A stretch of DNA of 49,326 bases, taken from NCBI GenBank assembly GCA_027365485.1, contig DAHXNH010000264.1:1-49326 (forward strand), written 5' to 3'. The DNA comes from Clostridiales bacterium (GTDB lineage: Bacteria > Bacillota > Sulfobacillia > Sulfobacillales > Sulfobacillaceae). Every line of letters begins with the position of its first letter. Position 1 is the stretch's first letter. The position numbers and the translations under genes were made by a program. Below are positions 17,892 to 23,496 of the stretch, in pieces. The notes beneath the pieces were generated by a model. It was not told the origin of the DNA. It made no database searches and saw only the letters and a program-made list of their open reading frames with translations.

Positions 17892-19941
17892 ATGGGTTTA
17901 CAACAAAAGCTTCCAGCTGCGCTTACGGTGGGTTTGGCGGCGATGGCACTGGCGGCGACCAGCCGGATCGGCTATGCCGATCCGGTGGCTAACGCGGCGT
18001 CAAGTACCGTGACCTACCCGGCTGATTCGCTAACCAGCCTTGACCCCATTGCCTGGGGTGGACAAGTTTTGCCCGACCAAGGCACCTTATTTGAAGGATT
18101 ATTTGGCTATAATAGCAAAAATCAAATCGTGCCCAAGATCGCGGATAAATGGAAAGTCTCGGACCATGGTTTTGTCTGGACCATTTGGATGCGGCACAAC
18201 GCCCGCTGGTCCAATGGCAAGCCCGTCACAGCTCAAGATTTTGCGTACGCTTGGCTTCGTAACGCAGCTCCGTCGAATACGGTCGATGACACTTGGGCGA
18301 GTGTAGTCAGCGACGTGCCGAATGAATCGGAATACCATGCCGGAGGCGTACCAGCCAGCGCTGTCGGAATTAACGTAGTCAACGATTACGAACTCAAAAT
18401 CACCCTAAGTACTGCGGTAACTATTGAAGGCTTGTTGGCTTTGGCGGGATCCATGCCGCTCTATCCGCAGGATGTTGAAGCCCATTCCTCGAATTGGTAT
18501 CTACCACAGTACTTTGTCGGTGACGGTCCATACGTTGTGCATTCCTGTGTGACTAACGGAGAGCTCGAAATGATCCGCAATCGGGACTATGTGGGTGCCA
18601 CTGGGCAGGAAAACGTCGGCAACGTACAGCAAATTGACTTAATTCCAGAGCCTCCGGTACCCGTCGAAGACGTTGAATCCAATGCCCTCGACGCTGCCGT
18701 GGTTACTTCCCCATCGGACTATCAATACGCTGAAGAGCACCTCAAGAGTGAGATCCACAAGGCGCCAGAGGCTAACATTATGTATCTAGGCTGGGACCAT
18801 TCGGTCGATGCGTCCCCACTCAACAATTCGTGGGCACGCGATGCGATCGCCATGGCGATTAACCGGGCCCCCATATCCGATCCGGTGCTTAACAACATGG
18901 CCGGGCCGACGTCGATCTTTGGTTATCCTGGGTTTCCCACCGACGCCAATCAAAGTAATCCGTTTGGATTTAACCTGGGCCAAGGACGAAAGCTCCTAAC
19001 CAAGGCTGGCTATCCCGATGGCAAGGGGATAGGCACGCTCTATCTAAACTGCCAAACCACGACCAACTCTCCGCAATCGGTATTGATCGCTGAGTCGGTG
19101 GCACAACAATTGAAGACCAACCTCAACATTCACTTCAAAGTGGAACCGGTCAACTCCACCTTGTGAGGCAATATGGATTACGAAGGGCTGACCAAAGGCA
19201 TTCTGCCTGGCTACAACGTCGATTTAGGCGTGGCCAACCGGAATAACACTTTGCAGTGGGCGCTCCAGCGCGACCAGTGGATGGACCTAGAAAATACCGG
19301 AGTCATTGGCCCGCAATCCTTTCGACAGTACGCCGAAAACTGGTATTTCTCTTCCTACGACCCCAATGACGTCAAGGCTTGGGGCTCGCCCACCGATACC
19401 AAACTCGGCGTCTCCTACGCTACGTGGCAGCCGATCATCAAAGCAGCCACATCAGACATTCAGTATATTAATGCTTGGACCGCCAAACAGCCCTTGAAGT
19501 ATCGAGAGTCCGTGGATCCTCCGGGGACCTTAAGCATGACGCAGCAACTGAAGGATTTCGAAAAGACTTACACCGAAGCCAAGACCCCCACGGCCAAGCC
19601 CGCTGCCTGGACCGCCTTTTGGCAATGGGTTGGAACCTACGCCGCGGGCACTGCCGGAATGGTTCCCGGCCTGAATGCGCAAGTACATGCTGACAAGTAT
19701 GAGCTCTCGTTAGAGTATCACATGCGAATTTGGGAGGGAGAGTTAGATGAAACTTCTAGCGCCAAGCCAGGCTGCCCAGTTGGTTGGGAAGATCGACGAT
19801 GGCATGATCCATTCCGCTTACGATATTCCCATCGCCTACGGGGAAAATGTGTATCTGGTAAAGCCTGATCTCACTGGAGTCCAGGCCAATCCCTGGCAGT
19901 TCCAATATCTGTATCAATTTCAGTACATGAAACTGAAATAG
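17892..19941 (+). pseudogene. ABC peptide-binding protein (OppA/SBP family 5), broken
   Basis: The gene starts at an ATG behind GAGGTGG with a signal peptide (hydrophobic to about residue 25, likely cut after IGYA); no lipobox cysteine is present. The family-5 pattern is clear: YPADSLTSLDPIAWGGQV, LFEGLFGY, VWTIWMRHNARWSNGKPVTAQDFAYAW, and a C-terminus ending PIAYGENVYLVKP and GVQANPWQFQY. An in-frame TGA at 19164-19166 splits it after VNSTL, and a +1 frameshift near 19750 precedes the last 60 residues. Full length would be about 680 residues. No permease or ATPase genes lie nearby. A perfect 10-bp inverted repeat with a 3-base loop covers the signal-peptide cleavage region (17963-17985). Confidence 0.88.
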
Positions 19942-20168: not shown

Positions 20169-20265
20169 CCTCTCGTCCAAGATCACGCATATTTTGACAG
20201 GAGGATTTTGGCGAATTGAAGCGAAATCGGTTAAACAGAGACAACATGGTGGAGGTGGGATATCG

Positions 20266-21069
20266 GTGGATGACAGGGAACTCAACGAGACATCTGGAGT
20301 CAGCGCCTATGCTGAGGCCTATGGATCTTCTTTTGCGAATTTGACTAAAGCCGTCAAAAGGCTAGGCGCCTTAAAAAACGTCGACGTCCAGGTCGGTCAG
20401 ATGAATATGGTCACGCTCAAAAAACAGCTGGAAGACATTCAGAGACTGAGCGAGGAGAGCTTGCGCTTAGCCAATTTTCTGGCTCAAAGGACTGCGGCCC
20501 ATCGCATGGCCGTGTCCGAAACGGACCAGCGTGAATGGACGGACCTCTTTCGTGCCAACCTTTCGACTCAGCGGACCGTGGAAGGGGATTTTCCGCAGTT
20601 TCTGGTGTTTCCTATCGAAATTCGGGTCGATTTTGCCAACGACCAAGTGTTGATCAACAAAAAGATCACCCGAAAACTCCATCCGAAGGCGGTAGCCGAC
20701 GCCGTAGAACGCGAACTCAACCGACTTTACGCGGAACGATTTAATCCTCAGCAATTCATGAAAGTGCTTTTGCGTGCCTTTGACCTATTGGTCGCGGAGG
20801 CTGGGACCAATAACGTGAAAACGCAATCCGTCCCCTTGACCGAGGTGTATAAGCTCTTAACTCTGCGCGCCGGCTCATCGAGTTACAGCGCAGTGCAATT
20901 TGCTTTCGACATCTATCGCTTCCGCCGCCAAGAAGAGCGTAGTCTCAACGGACGTCACGTCACCTTTGGTGCGTCTAAGAATCGATCGGGCTACATCATT
21001 CCTCGACAAGGCCGCGATCCTGAGGTATTAGGGTCGTTGGAAGTCACGGGGCCTGAGTCGGCGCCATGA
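20266..21069 (+). CDS. First gene of the twin-ATPase operon, unrecognised protein
   Basis: A 267-residue soluble protein that I do not recognise. The start is GTG at 20266 because GGAGGTGG lies seven bases upstream; the frame stays open 39 codons further, but without a ribosome binding site. Residues about 45-80 form a likely coiled coil (LKKQLEDIQRLSEESLRL). A mixed alpha/beta segment follows (PQFLVFPIEIRVDF), then helices (LHPKAVADAVERELNRLY) and a basic C-terminal part (YRFRRQEERSLNGRHVTFG). No signal peptide, membrane segment or enzyme motif was seen. Its TGA overlaps the next start (ATGA), so the two are translationally coupled. It may be an adaptor or DNA-binding partner of the ATPases; this is inference. 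Confidence 0.8.
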   Translation: MDDRELNETSGVSAYAEAYGSSFANLTKAVKRLGALKNVDVQVGQMNMVTLKKQLEDIQRLSEESLRLANFLAQRTAAHRMAVSETDQREWTDLFRANLSTQRTVEGDFPQFLVFPIEIRVDFANDQVLINKKITRKLHPKAVADAVERELNRLYAERFNPQQFMKVLLRAFDLLVAEAGTNNVKTQSVPLTEVYKLLTLRAGSSSYSAVQFAFDIYRFRRQEERSLNGRHVTFGASKNRSGYIIPRQGRDPEVLGSLEVTGPESAP

Positions 21070-22271
21070 CCCATCAGGACGCTTGGCGTATATTTAGTGC
21101 CCATCCGGGGGCAGAAATGCTCGCTGACAGTAGTATTCAAGAAACGTTCTTGGATGTCGGCGGCTTGGAGGCATTTTGGCGCAAGTGGTATCTTGAAGAC
21201 TTTATCTCTAGCGGCTATGGCAAGGTCAAATTTTTGTTTGGCGGTATGGGTGCAGGCAAAACCCATTGGCTTCGCCGTTTGGCAATCACTAGCGACCAAC
21301 TGGGCTACTTAGTCGCTTTCATCGATGCTCGCCTTGTTCGCCTCTCTGACATCGAAGAACTTTATCGCGCAGTAGTCGCTGCCATTCCCCTCGCCGCGGT
21401 GGTCGATCGCGCCTGCCGAAAAATCATTGTCGACGACCTCGGGTATCGTGAATTTGACGGTGACGTGGTCGAGTTCTCCTATTGGTTAGAACATGATCGC
21501 GAACTGGATCCGGCGCTTTTTCGCCGCGACATCCGTGAAGCGGTGGACCGATGGCTCCATCCTCAGGATTTAGCCACCGATTTTCTGCTAGCCATCCGCT
21601 CTTGGATTCATCAGCGATTGATGAACGAGACCAATCAACACGTCCCCGAGGGATGGATTTTGGGCGAAAAACTGATGGCACCCGAACGCAAGAGTCTTGG
21701 TGTGAAATCAAGCATCAACCGCCGAAACGCCCGAGCCGTGCTCTCTTCGCTAGCGGTTTTTAGTCATGCAGCGGGGTTTCCAGGAATTCTGGTGGCAATC
21801 GACAACTTCGATTCCGTAGCCAAAACGACGCGCACCGAAGGCGAGATCTACTACACGCGGGGCAAACGCGATCAAAGTTATGAAATGATGAGGCAACTGA
21901 TTGACGAAAGCGTACATACGCCGTTTTTGATGCTGGTATTAGGGGGAGATCGACAGCCGCTGAGCGATAGCCGGTCGGGATTCCCATCCTATCCTGCGCT
22001 TTGGGCCCGGATCGAAAATGAGATCTCCACAGATAGAGTGAACCGATTCGCTGACGCCATTGTCTTGGACGATCTTTGGCAAGAAGATATGGAAAACGTC
22101 AAACGCTTAGCGAGCGTGTGGTCTCTGCATCATCCCGAGATCACCCCTCCGGCCACCCGCGCGGAGACCGAGACCGCCGTCGGGCTAGAATGGTCGTTAG
22201 CTCGAAGAGTCGTCTTGGCGGTCATGTCGGATCGGAATCTCGACATTGGGGAGGGCGATCTGGATGAATAA
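21066..22271 (+). CDS. P-loop ATPase, first of two in the operon
   Basis: A 401-residue protein with Walker A at residues 59-67 (GGMGAGKTH) and a likely Walker B at about 240-249 (GILVAIDNFD). After a helical stretch comes FLMLVLGGDRQPLS (about 286-300), a likely sensor strand. The GKTH ending and overall order resemble the BREX BrxC/BrxD type of AAA-like ATPase, but the match is weaker than for the next gene. A conserved-looking FLDVGGLEAFWRKWYLEDFISSG precedes the P-loop. It is tightly coupled on both sides: ATGA overlap upstream and an 8-base overlap downstream. It probably works in a complex with the next ATPase, perhaps on DNA. Confidence 0.83.
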   Translation: MTHQDAWRIFSAHPGAEMLADSSIQETFLDVGGLEAFWRKWYLEDFISSGYGKVKFLFGGMGAGKTHWLRRLAITSDQLGYLVAFIDARLVRLSDIEELYRAVVAAIPLAAVVDRACRKIIVDDLGYREFDGDVVEFSYWLEHDRELDPALFRRDIREAVDRWLHPQDLATDFLLAIRSWIHQRLMNETNQHVPEGWILGEKLMAPERKSLGVKSSINRRNARAVLSSLAVFSHAAGFPGILVAIDNFDSVAKTTRTEGEIYYTRGKRDQSYEMMRQLIDESVHTPFLMLVLGGDRQPLSDSRSGFPSYPALWARIENEISTDRVNRFADAIVLDDLWQEDMENVKRLASVWSLHHPEITPPATRAETETAVGLEWSLARRVVLAVMSDRNLDIGEGDLDE

Positions 22272-23496
22272 AGAGCGGGTCATTATCGAGGGACTGCGTT
22301 CGGGTGTGCCCTTTCGAGAAACAGCCCAGGCATTCACTGTGGGCCGAACTCAAAATCTGACGACCATCGGTCGCCTGATGGAAGCGGTCGAGCAGGGACG
22401 GCAAACGCCGGCCCAAGGCATGATCATTCGTGCCCAGTACGGAGAAGGCAAAACCCACCTCTTGCATGCCTTGGCGGCGATGGCGGAAGAACGGAATTGG
22501 TTGGTCAGCATGGTCACGCTCAGCAAGGAAACCCCGCTTGACCGACTCGACTACCTGTATCCCAAGATTATGCAAAACGTGTACCGTCCTGGCAGCCATC
22601 AACCCGGATTCGAGGCCGTCATTCGTGAAGCGCTGAGGGCGCCTCATCTAGGTCCCGACTCGCGCCTACTGCAAGCCTCCGACCGCGTTCATGCCGTTTT
22701 GGACAATCTGATTCATCAAGACAATGGCTTTGACGTCCTGCTCGATGATGTCTCTGGGAACTTCGTGACGTTGGCCGATATCAAGCGTTTTACGCGTGAC
22801 AATTTTTCGCGGCGCCTGCCCATAGCCTCGTCTCGAATCAAAGATGAAATTCCCCACTATTTTCAACTGGTCAACTGGCTCATTTGGCACACCGAATATG
22901 AAGGCCTGTTGATTTTGTTCGACGAAGTCGAACTCATCGGCAAGTTTGGCCGCGGTGGTCGAGCCCGCAGCTACGTGAATATGGGCCGCTTTCTGAACGG
23001 CATGGGCGATCATCTGCTGAGCATCTGGGCGGTCGCAGGCAACTTTCAAACGGATGTCATCCTGCCCCGCAAGGACCACGAAGTAATCGAGCAGTGGCTC
23101 TCGTCCCGGCCTAAAGAAGCCGAAGGCGTGGCGTGGTCTAACGCTGCGCTCGATGAATTGTCGTCGGCCAGGCCTCTCGACCCGCTAACCCCAGAGCAAA
23201 TCCGCGACATGCTAGGAGAAATTGCCGCGCTGCATCAAATCGCCTACGAGTGGGATTGCGGTCTCGACGGCGCCGCCTTCTATCAACTGGTCCGAGAGCA
23301 CATGGACGTGCTCGACGCTCGTCTGCGCACCTGGATTCGCATGGCCATCAGTCTCTTAGACATGCGCTGGCAATTTGGCGATGAGGCGTCGGTAAAGGCT
23401 CACGATATCGAAGAAGTCGACTTGTCAGAGGATCGGAGTTACGAAGAAGCACCGGATGCAGACGAGGACTCAGAGCATCCCTGGCGAAGCCATTAG
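22264..23496 (+). CDS. BrxD-like ATPase (BREX ATP-binding domain, DUF2791)
   Basis: A 410-residue ATPase. The start is the ATG at 22264 behind GGGGAGGG, inside the end of the previous gene. The opening (ERVIIEGLRSGVPFRETAQ) is typical of BrxD-type proteins. Walker A (AQYGEGKTHLL, about 57-67), SKETPLDRLDYLYPKI, and Walker B (GLLILFDEVELI, about 214-225) follow in the DUF2791 order. A polar acidic tail ends the protein (EEAPDADEDSEH). BrxD is known from type 2 BREX, where it sits with PglX, PglY, PglZ and a helicase; none of these is here. The operon therefore represents a separate use of this ATPase type. Role in defence or DNA transactions is inferred. Confidence 0.87.
   Translation: MNKERVIIEGLRSGVPFRETAQAFTVGRTQNLTTIGRLMEAVEQGRQTPAQGMIIRAQYGEGKTHLLHALAAMAEERNWLVSMVTLSKETPLDRLDYLYPKIMQNVYRPGSHQPGFEAVIREALRAPHLGPDSRLLQASDRVHAVLDNLIHQDNGFDVLLDDVSGNFVTLADIKRFTRDNFSRRLPIASSRIKDEIPHYFQLVNWLIWHTEYEGLLILFDEVELIGKFGRGGRARSYVNMGRFLNGMGDHLLSIWAVAGNFQTDVILPRKDHEVIEQWLSSRPKEAEGVAWSNAALDELSSARPLDPLTPEQIRDMLGEIAALHQIAYEWDCGLDGAAFYQLVREHMDVLDARLRTWIRMAISLLDMRWQFGDEASVKAHDIEEVDLSEDRSYEEAPDADEDSEHPWRSH

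What the first reader, a model, noticed from the sequence alone, without database searches (positions are those of the whole stretch)
20266..23496. Stand-alone three-gene operon: unknown protein plus two P-loop ATPases, one BrxD-like
Seen: three plus-strand genes joined by overlaps (ATGA; 8 bases), with strong ribosome binding sites, two Walker A motifs (GGMGAGKTH; AQYGEGKTHLL) and an unrecognised first protein with a coiled coil. Known: DUF2791 (BrxC/BrxD) ATPases occur in BREX phage defence with PglX, PglZ and helicases. Inference: here the twin ATPases work with a new partner and no methylase, PglZ or helicase, so this may be a separate defence or DNA-handling system. It is the only intact, compact operon of unknown function in a region full of decayed mobile DNA.
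Basis: partly seen in the sequence, partly recalled or inferred. Interest (0 to 1): 0.78.

Follow-up and report, generated by a model that had tools for sequence, protein, structure and literature searches.

The report
Orphan loader-like ATPase trio, probable defence
Three overlapping bacterial genes, always found together in the same order, encode a probable DNA-binding protein and two ATPases related to those that load DNA helicases, one of which has usually lost a key catalytic residue; the set is separate from the known BREX phage-defence system, and in many relatives a fourth gene encodes a ring-shaped helicase-like partner, so it may be a small, testable new member of that defence kin.

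Summary
The operon is real. A (20266-21069), B (21066-22271) and C (22264-23496) overlap as described, with both Walker A motifs. Its host lies in the Sulfobacillus lineage (Bacillota).

A has no family in Pfam, NCBIfam or PADLOC. AlphaFold gives a coiled-coil hairpin plus a probable winged-helix domain. B and C are divergent BrxC/BrxD (ORC/Cdc6-type) AAA+ ATPases. C keeps Walker A and the catalytic 'DE' almost always. B has lost the Walker B glutamate in 43 of 45 homologues, and its P-loop in six.

A-B-C occurs in that order in 46 of 46 loci with room for it, in 20 of 34 family genomes and 18 of 398 sampled phylum genomes. It is under purifying selection (dN/dS 0.05-0.14). In 16 loci BrxL, an MCM-like AAA+, follows immediately, as one clade separate from BREX BrxL. 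Elsewhere SNF2, SF1 or Cas genes adjoin, or nothing. The window's genome has no BrxL and no second copy; genomes that also hold BREX hold it on other contigs.

Best reading: an undescribed, probably anti-invader DNA module working like an ORC/Cdc6-type helicase loader. The trio and the BrxL partnership are shown; defence and loading are inferred.

The parts
20251..20259 (+). ribosome-binding site GGAGGTGGG of gene A
   Evidence: sequence
20266..21069 (+). gene A, 267 aa, start GTG; no known family; helical hairpin then alpha/beta and winged-helix-like C-terminal part
20299..20499 (+). codons of A residues 12-78: antiparallel coiled-coil hairpin
   Evidence: AlphaFold model; coiled-coil matches
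20734..21066 (+). codons of A residues 157-267: probable winged-helix domain
   Evidence: model and VIA-align rows dominated by winged helices (kleisin, ORC1, RepE), Z at most 6.8
21066..22271 (+). gene B, 401 aa, BrxC/BrxD-type AAA+ ATPase with degenerate Walker B (D-N)
21240..21266 (+). Walker A of B, GGMGAGKTH
21801..21806 (+). Walker B Asp-Asn of B (no catalytic Glu)
22250..22255 (+). ribosome-binding site GGAGGG of gene C
   Evidence: sequence
22264..23496 (+). gene C, 410 aa, BrxC/BrxD-type AAA+ ATPase with intact Walker A and Walker B
22432..22458 (+). Walker A of C, AQYGEGKTH
22921..22926 (+). Walker B Asp-Glu of C

Best explanation
A-B-C is a complete, selected, BREX-independent accessory module that acts on DNA, most likely against invading DNA, and works like an ORC/Cdc6-type helicase loader. 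B (structural, at best weakly hydrolysing) and C (active ATPase) form a mixed AAA+ assembly. A joins it through its coiled-coil hairpin and brings a winged helix to the DNA, in place of the winged helix that ORC/Cdc6 proteins carry themselves. Loaded on foreign or abnormal DNA, the complex recruits or activates a motor: a dedicated MCM-like BrxL ring in many relatives, possibly SNF2 or SF1 helicases where these adjoin. In the window's lineage BrxL has been lost or was never gained, so either the loader complex itself blocks DNA, or it uses a helicase encoded elsewhere (for example the SNF2 helicase/PglZ pair on contig C323). Shown: operon, conservation, order, selection, degenerate and intact ATPase pair, BrxL subfamily, no BrxL in this genome. 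Inferred: complex formation, DNA binding by A, loading, defence.
For: B and C both match PF10923 BrxC_BrxD and PADLOC BrxD and SngB models. The two plasmid relatives of C (found with a homologue) that were opened and carry annotation are the ATPase of TerB-N/ATPase/helicase (Shango-type) operons; another hit is annotated brxD. Literature: BrxD is an ORC/Cdc6-clade AAA+ proposed to load a helicase, and BrxL is MCM-family (PMC12839542); the BrxL structure paper itself suggests unknown loading factors (PMC10164562). A-B-C order in 46/46 loci, BrxL directly after C in 16. The trio's BrxL forms one clade apart from BREX BrxL (split support 0.993). Walker B after the Asp: B N26/D9/H4/G2/I2 against E2; C E41/41. 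A's C-terminal model aligns best with winged helices, including ORC1, kleisins and RepE. Purifying selection. Patchy presence, 20/34 family genomes, and different chromosomal sites: in two relatives the orthologous reductase/rml locus lacks the trio, which sits elsewhere in them. Neighbours in other genomes include SNF2, SF1 and XPB-like helicases, Cas3d, Cas6, TM1802 and BrxC; PADLOC models matched by 112 neighbours 161 against 74 for 122 control proteins.
Against: No experiment and no co-fold. The window locus has no motor, nuclease or clear defence neighbour and its genome has no BrxL. All structural matches of A's C-terminal part lie under Z 8, where common arrangements also score, and Foldseek gave nothing at E below 0.001. 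The neighbour comparison is not a formal test: several models hit one protein and matches are not listed per member. No match of A in phage or plasmid collections, so mobility is inferred only from patchiness and position.
Confidence: 0.5

Rival explanations
1. The trio is a non-defence DNA-maintenance or replication/segregation module: an initiator- or kleisin-like winged-helix protein with an ORC-like ATPase pair that handles host DNA (repair, replication restart, chromosome or element maintenance).
For: A's winged helix resembles ORC1, RepE and kleisin domains; strong purifying selection; in the window it sits beside metabolic genes, not a defence island.
Against: Patchy even inside genera (14 of 34 family genomes lack it) and at differing chromosomal sites, unlike housekeeping genes; neighbours in some relatives are Cas genes and helicases; the partner BrxL is a phage-restriction factor family (PMC10164562).
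Confidence: 0.25
2. It is a reduced remnant of a four-gene A-B-C-BrxL system that has lost its effector and is on the way out in this lineage.
For: The trio's BrxL clade follows the trio tree roughly, and lineages without BrxL are scattered among those with it, suggesting repeated loss; no BrxL trace remains by tblastn.
Against: All three genes are intact with dN/dS 0.05-0.14 between congeners; the whole clade window+G001+G010 and its sister (L020, L021) lack BrxL yet keep the operon; Clostridia-type relatives have the trio with no BrxL beside it.
Confidence: 0.15
3. An ancillary part of BREX acting in trans.
For: B and C belong to the BrxC/BrxD family, and five of the family's genomes with the trio also hold a BREX-like cluster with a PglZ of about 830 aa.
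Against: The window's genome shows only a low-scoring 597 aa PglZ next to an SNF2-type helicase; most trio genomes lack the large PglZ; the BREX-like cluster lies on other contigs where present.
Confidence: 0.06

Closest known systems
Shango (SngA TerB-N protein, SngB ATPase, SngC helicase)
   Same: compact operon with a BrxD-like ATPase of about 400 aa; both B and C match SngB (6.8e-12, 3.3e-9); plasmid relatives of C that were opened are SngB-type genes; proven anti-phage (PMC10250203)
   Different: two ATPases instead of one; A has no TerB match; no helicase in the window
BREX Type 2 BrxD (with BrxHI helicase)
   Same: ORC/Cdc6-clade AAA+ of this family; proposed helicase loader (PMC12839542)
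   Different: scores 73 and 54 bits against a curated cut-off of 350; no PglX, PglZ, BrxC, PglW or BrxHI at the locus
BrxL of Type 1 and 4 BREX
   Same: a BrxL is the next gene in 16 related loci, PF13337 about 1e-92
   Different: separate clade from BREX BrxL; absent from the window's genome
Eukaryotic and archaeal ORC/Cdc6 with MCM
   Same: mixed AAA+ assembly with inactive and active members, winged helix, ring helicase partner (analogy)
   Different: winged helix in a separate protein; no evidence for origin function

Membership tests
BREX | PglZ, BrxC and (except Type 4) PglX/BrxX encoded in the same cluster | tested here: not met
   no such gene beside the trio in the window; only a low-scoring PglZ on another contig, C323
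BrxD (NCBIfam NF033438 equivalog) | score above curated cut-off of 350 bits | tested here: not met
   B 73.2 bits, C 53.6 bits
Pfam PF10923 BrxC_BrxD superfamily | score above gathering cut-off 22.2 bits | tested here: met
   B 99.8, C 81.4 bits
Shango | TerB-domain protein | tested here: not met
   A matches no Pfam or PADLOC family
Shango | adjacent DEAD/DEAH helicase SngC | tested here: not met
   next gene downstream is an aldo/keto reductase on the other strand
Shango | SngB-type ATPase | tested here: inconclusive
   both B and C match the SngB model but score higher against BrxD
ORC/Cdc6-type loader | AAA+ with intact ATPase site in at least one subunit | tested here: met
   C Walker A 41/42 and DE 41/41
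ORC/Cdc6-type loader | winged-helix domain | tested here: inconclusive
   in A, not shown to be fused to the ATPases; winged-helix matches at Z at most 6.8
ORC/Cdc6-type loader | loads a ring helicase | not testable with these tools
   MCM-like BrxL partner exists only in relatives

The most novel reading that the evidence does not exclude
A distinct, undescribed defence system whose core is a three-part ORC-like loader (winged-helix coiled-coil protein, degenerate ATPase, live ATPase) that is paired with an exchangeable motor (its own BrxL clade, SNF2 or SF1 helicase) and restricts invading DNA without modification-based self-marking.
Probability: 0.35. Interest if true: 0.8.

Novelty: new variant of a known kind. 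Interest (0 to 1): 0.6.

Why it matters
BREX has been hard to dissect because six or more proteins and methylation are entangled. The BrxL structure paper suggested that unknown loading factors may place the BrxL ring on DNA (PMC10164562). Here nature offers a minimal set, one probable DNA-binding protein, a degenerate and a live ORC-like ATPase and a dedicated BrxL, without methylase or PglZ, plus natural versions without BrxL. This makes the loader idea directly testable. It also raises the question of how such a system would tell self from non-self without methylation.

Tried and rejected
A against plasmids and phages by tblastn: no match. A in viral contigs: one weak locus (L017), in which a later HMM search found no trio, and nothing with the alignment. 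An over-diverse alignment could not be used for locus search. C of the window against plasmids: no match at 1e-5; a homologue reached distant BrxD/SngB-type genes. Structural search with whole A returned mostly coiled coils; the C-terminal part was then folded alone and gave no Foldseek match under E 0.001 but winged helices in the second look. A profile against PDB sequences gave coiled coils, taken as composition. BREX membership rejected (see table). A BrxL remnant downstream of C was sought by tblastn and not found. A search centred on another phylum through a plasmid locus was not possible, so no other phylum was scanned with A. That all five family genomes with a large PglZ carry the trio was not pursued: with 20 of 34 genomes carrying it this is about 6% by chance (own calculation).

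Full report
Observation. The three genes are as described, on the plus strand: A 20266-21069, B 21066-22271, C 22264-23496. Overlaps are ATGA and 8 bases. Strong ribosome-binding sites precede A and C; B is probably translationally coupled. GC content of the trio (0.544) equals that of the window (0.545), so there is no compositional sign of recent foreign origin.

What the proteins are. A matches nothing in Pfam, NCBIfam (only noise) or PADLOC. B and C both pass the Pfam gathering score of BrxC_BrxD, lie far below the NCBIfam BrxD equivalog cut-off and match PADLOC BrxD and SngB. B and C are barely alike outside the P-loop region (28% over 47 residues, E 0.004).

Distribution. A was found in 28 of 101 relatives, 20 of them in the own family, which holds 34 genomes, and in 18 of 398 genomes drawn from the phylum. 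Named hosts include Sulfobacillus harzensis, S. benefaciens, an Alicyclobacillaceae strain and a Limnochordaceae MAG. Fifty loci were read in six frames (window, L018-L044, seven named contigs, L090-L104). In 46 of them A, B and C lie in this order on one strand; the four others are three contig ends (L041, L044, L055) and one fragment (L104). L042 has an additional B. In L044 (S. benefaciens AMDSBA4) A is broken into two frames.

A fourth gene. In 16 loci the next gene is a BrxL (PF13337 about 1e-92), overlapping or within a few tens of bases of C. The BrxL proteins of the trio form one clade, separated with support 0.993 from BrxL proteins encoded near PglZ in the same class. The order of branching roughly follows the trio's own tree, so BrxL probably accompanied the trio early in this class and was lost several times. 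The window's genome has no BrxL and no remnant downstream of C. Elsewhere the neighbours are an SNF2 helicase (L035, L102; homologue L103), an SF1 Mokosh-like helicase (L036; homologue L041), an XPB-like helicase on the other strand (L097; homologues L099, L100), Cas3d (L090), Cas6 (L095), TM1802 (L062) and BrxC/DUF6079 (L091). The trio often stands alone.

ATPase state. After the Walker B aspartate, C has glutamate in all 41 sequences with data and keeps Walker A in 41 of 42 (in the exception, L034, C is split between two frames). B has glutamate in only 2 of 45 (N 26, D 9, H 4, G 2, I 2), and six Clostridia-type B proteins have lost the P-loop altogether while C remains intact. A degenerate/live pair is therefore a conserved property of the system. 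Such pairing is known from ORC (own knowledge).

Structure of A. The AlphaFold model (pLDDT 86.7) shows a helical hairpin (12-78) followed by a small beta sheet, two long helices and a wing-bearing end. The C-terminal part folded alone (pLDDT 84.2) has no Foldseek match under E 0.001. The second look is filled with winged helices: condensin and cohesin kleisins, ORC1, RepE, forkhead, with Z of at most 6.8. I take this as moderate support for a winged helix, not for descent from any of these.

Selection and position. Between the window and its congener (L018) dN/dS is 0.099 (A), 0.050 (B) and 0.139 (C). Downstream, the aldo/keto reductase and rml-type genes are shared with G001 and G010, which also have the trio here. 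In G004 and G013 the orthologous reductase, RmlB and RfbC genes are followed instead by an ORF that reads as a PIG-L-like deacetylase (by eye), without the trio, while these genomes carry the trio on other contigs. This is presence/absence at one site, as expected for accessory genes.

BREX. Five family members with the trio (G008, G010, G013, G018, G024) also hold a BREX-like cluster on another contig, nearly whole in some and cut by contig ends in others (gene identities there judged by size and order, except PglZ). The window's genome has only a low-scoring PglZ of 597 aa beside an SNF2-type helicase on contig C323. The trio is thus not encoded as part of BREX.

Mechanism. Published work places BrxD in the ORC/Cdc6 clade and proposes that it loads a helicase, and places BrxL in the MCM family (PMC12839542). 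The BrxL structure paper raises the possible need for loading factors (PMC10164562). The simplest reading of the anatomy is a loader: B and C as AAA+ assembly, A as DNA-binding and bridging subunit, BrxL or another helicase as client. Every step beyond sequence is inference. Defence is favoured because of patchy presence, kinship to Shango (proven anti-phage, PMC10250203) and BREX, the BrxL partner, and defence genes beside the trio in several other genomes. The comparison of neighbours (161 PADLOC models hit by 112 proteins against 74 by 122 control proteins) points the same way but is not a formal test.

Novelty. The 2026 survey of BREX and related systems does not mention Shango or 'BrxD-like' and 'BrxL-like' proteins in its text, and the passages read describe no BrxD pair with BrxL (its supplements were not readable). 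No paper found describes this trio, within an open-access library only. I file it as a new variant of a known kind.

Noticed in passing
window 17892-19868: A family 5 solute-binding protein gene (SBP_bac_5) is split into two ORFs directly upstream of the trio, and its homologue in G001 (L018) also aligns in several broken pieces: probably an inherited pseudogene.
   Followed up: partly
window, two of the ORFs scanned: Two proteins match Cas12f/TnpB models, so IS605-type TnpB genes or remnants are present.
   Followed up: no
L105:6354-11574 (own genome, contig C323): SNF2-type helicase (902 aa), small PglZ (597 aa) and a 242 aa protein in a row; in G021 (L112) a similar pair lies beside an N6/N4 DNA methylase: possibly another BREX-related system.
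   Followed up: partly
L042:4313-11385: A locus with A-B-C plus an additional separate B-like ATPase.
   Followed up: no
L091:10464-11717, L094:8988-10058, L098:10761-11798: A conserved protein of about 350-420 aa with a helix-turn-helix (tested in L094) lies directly upstream of the trio in three related genomes, possibly its regulator.
   Followed up: partly
L102:12858-15271 and L103:12898-15221: In two distant relatives C is followed by a 186/193 aa protein of no known family and an SNF2 helicase, forming a five-gene run.
   Followed up: partly
L044:1275-2112: Gene A of Sulfobacillus benefaciens AMDSBA4 is broken into two frames, so the system can decay.
   Followed up: no
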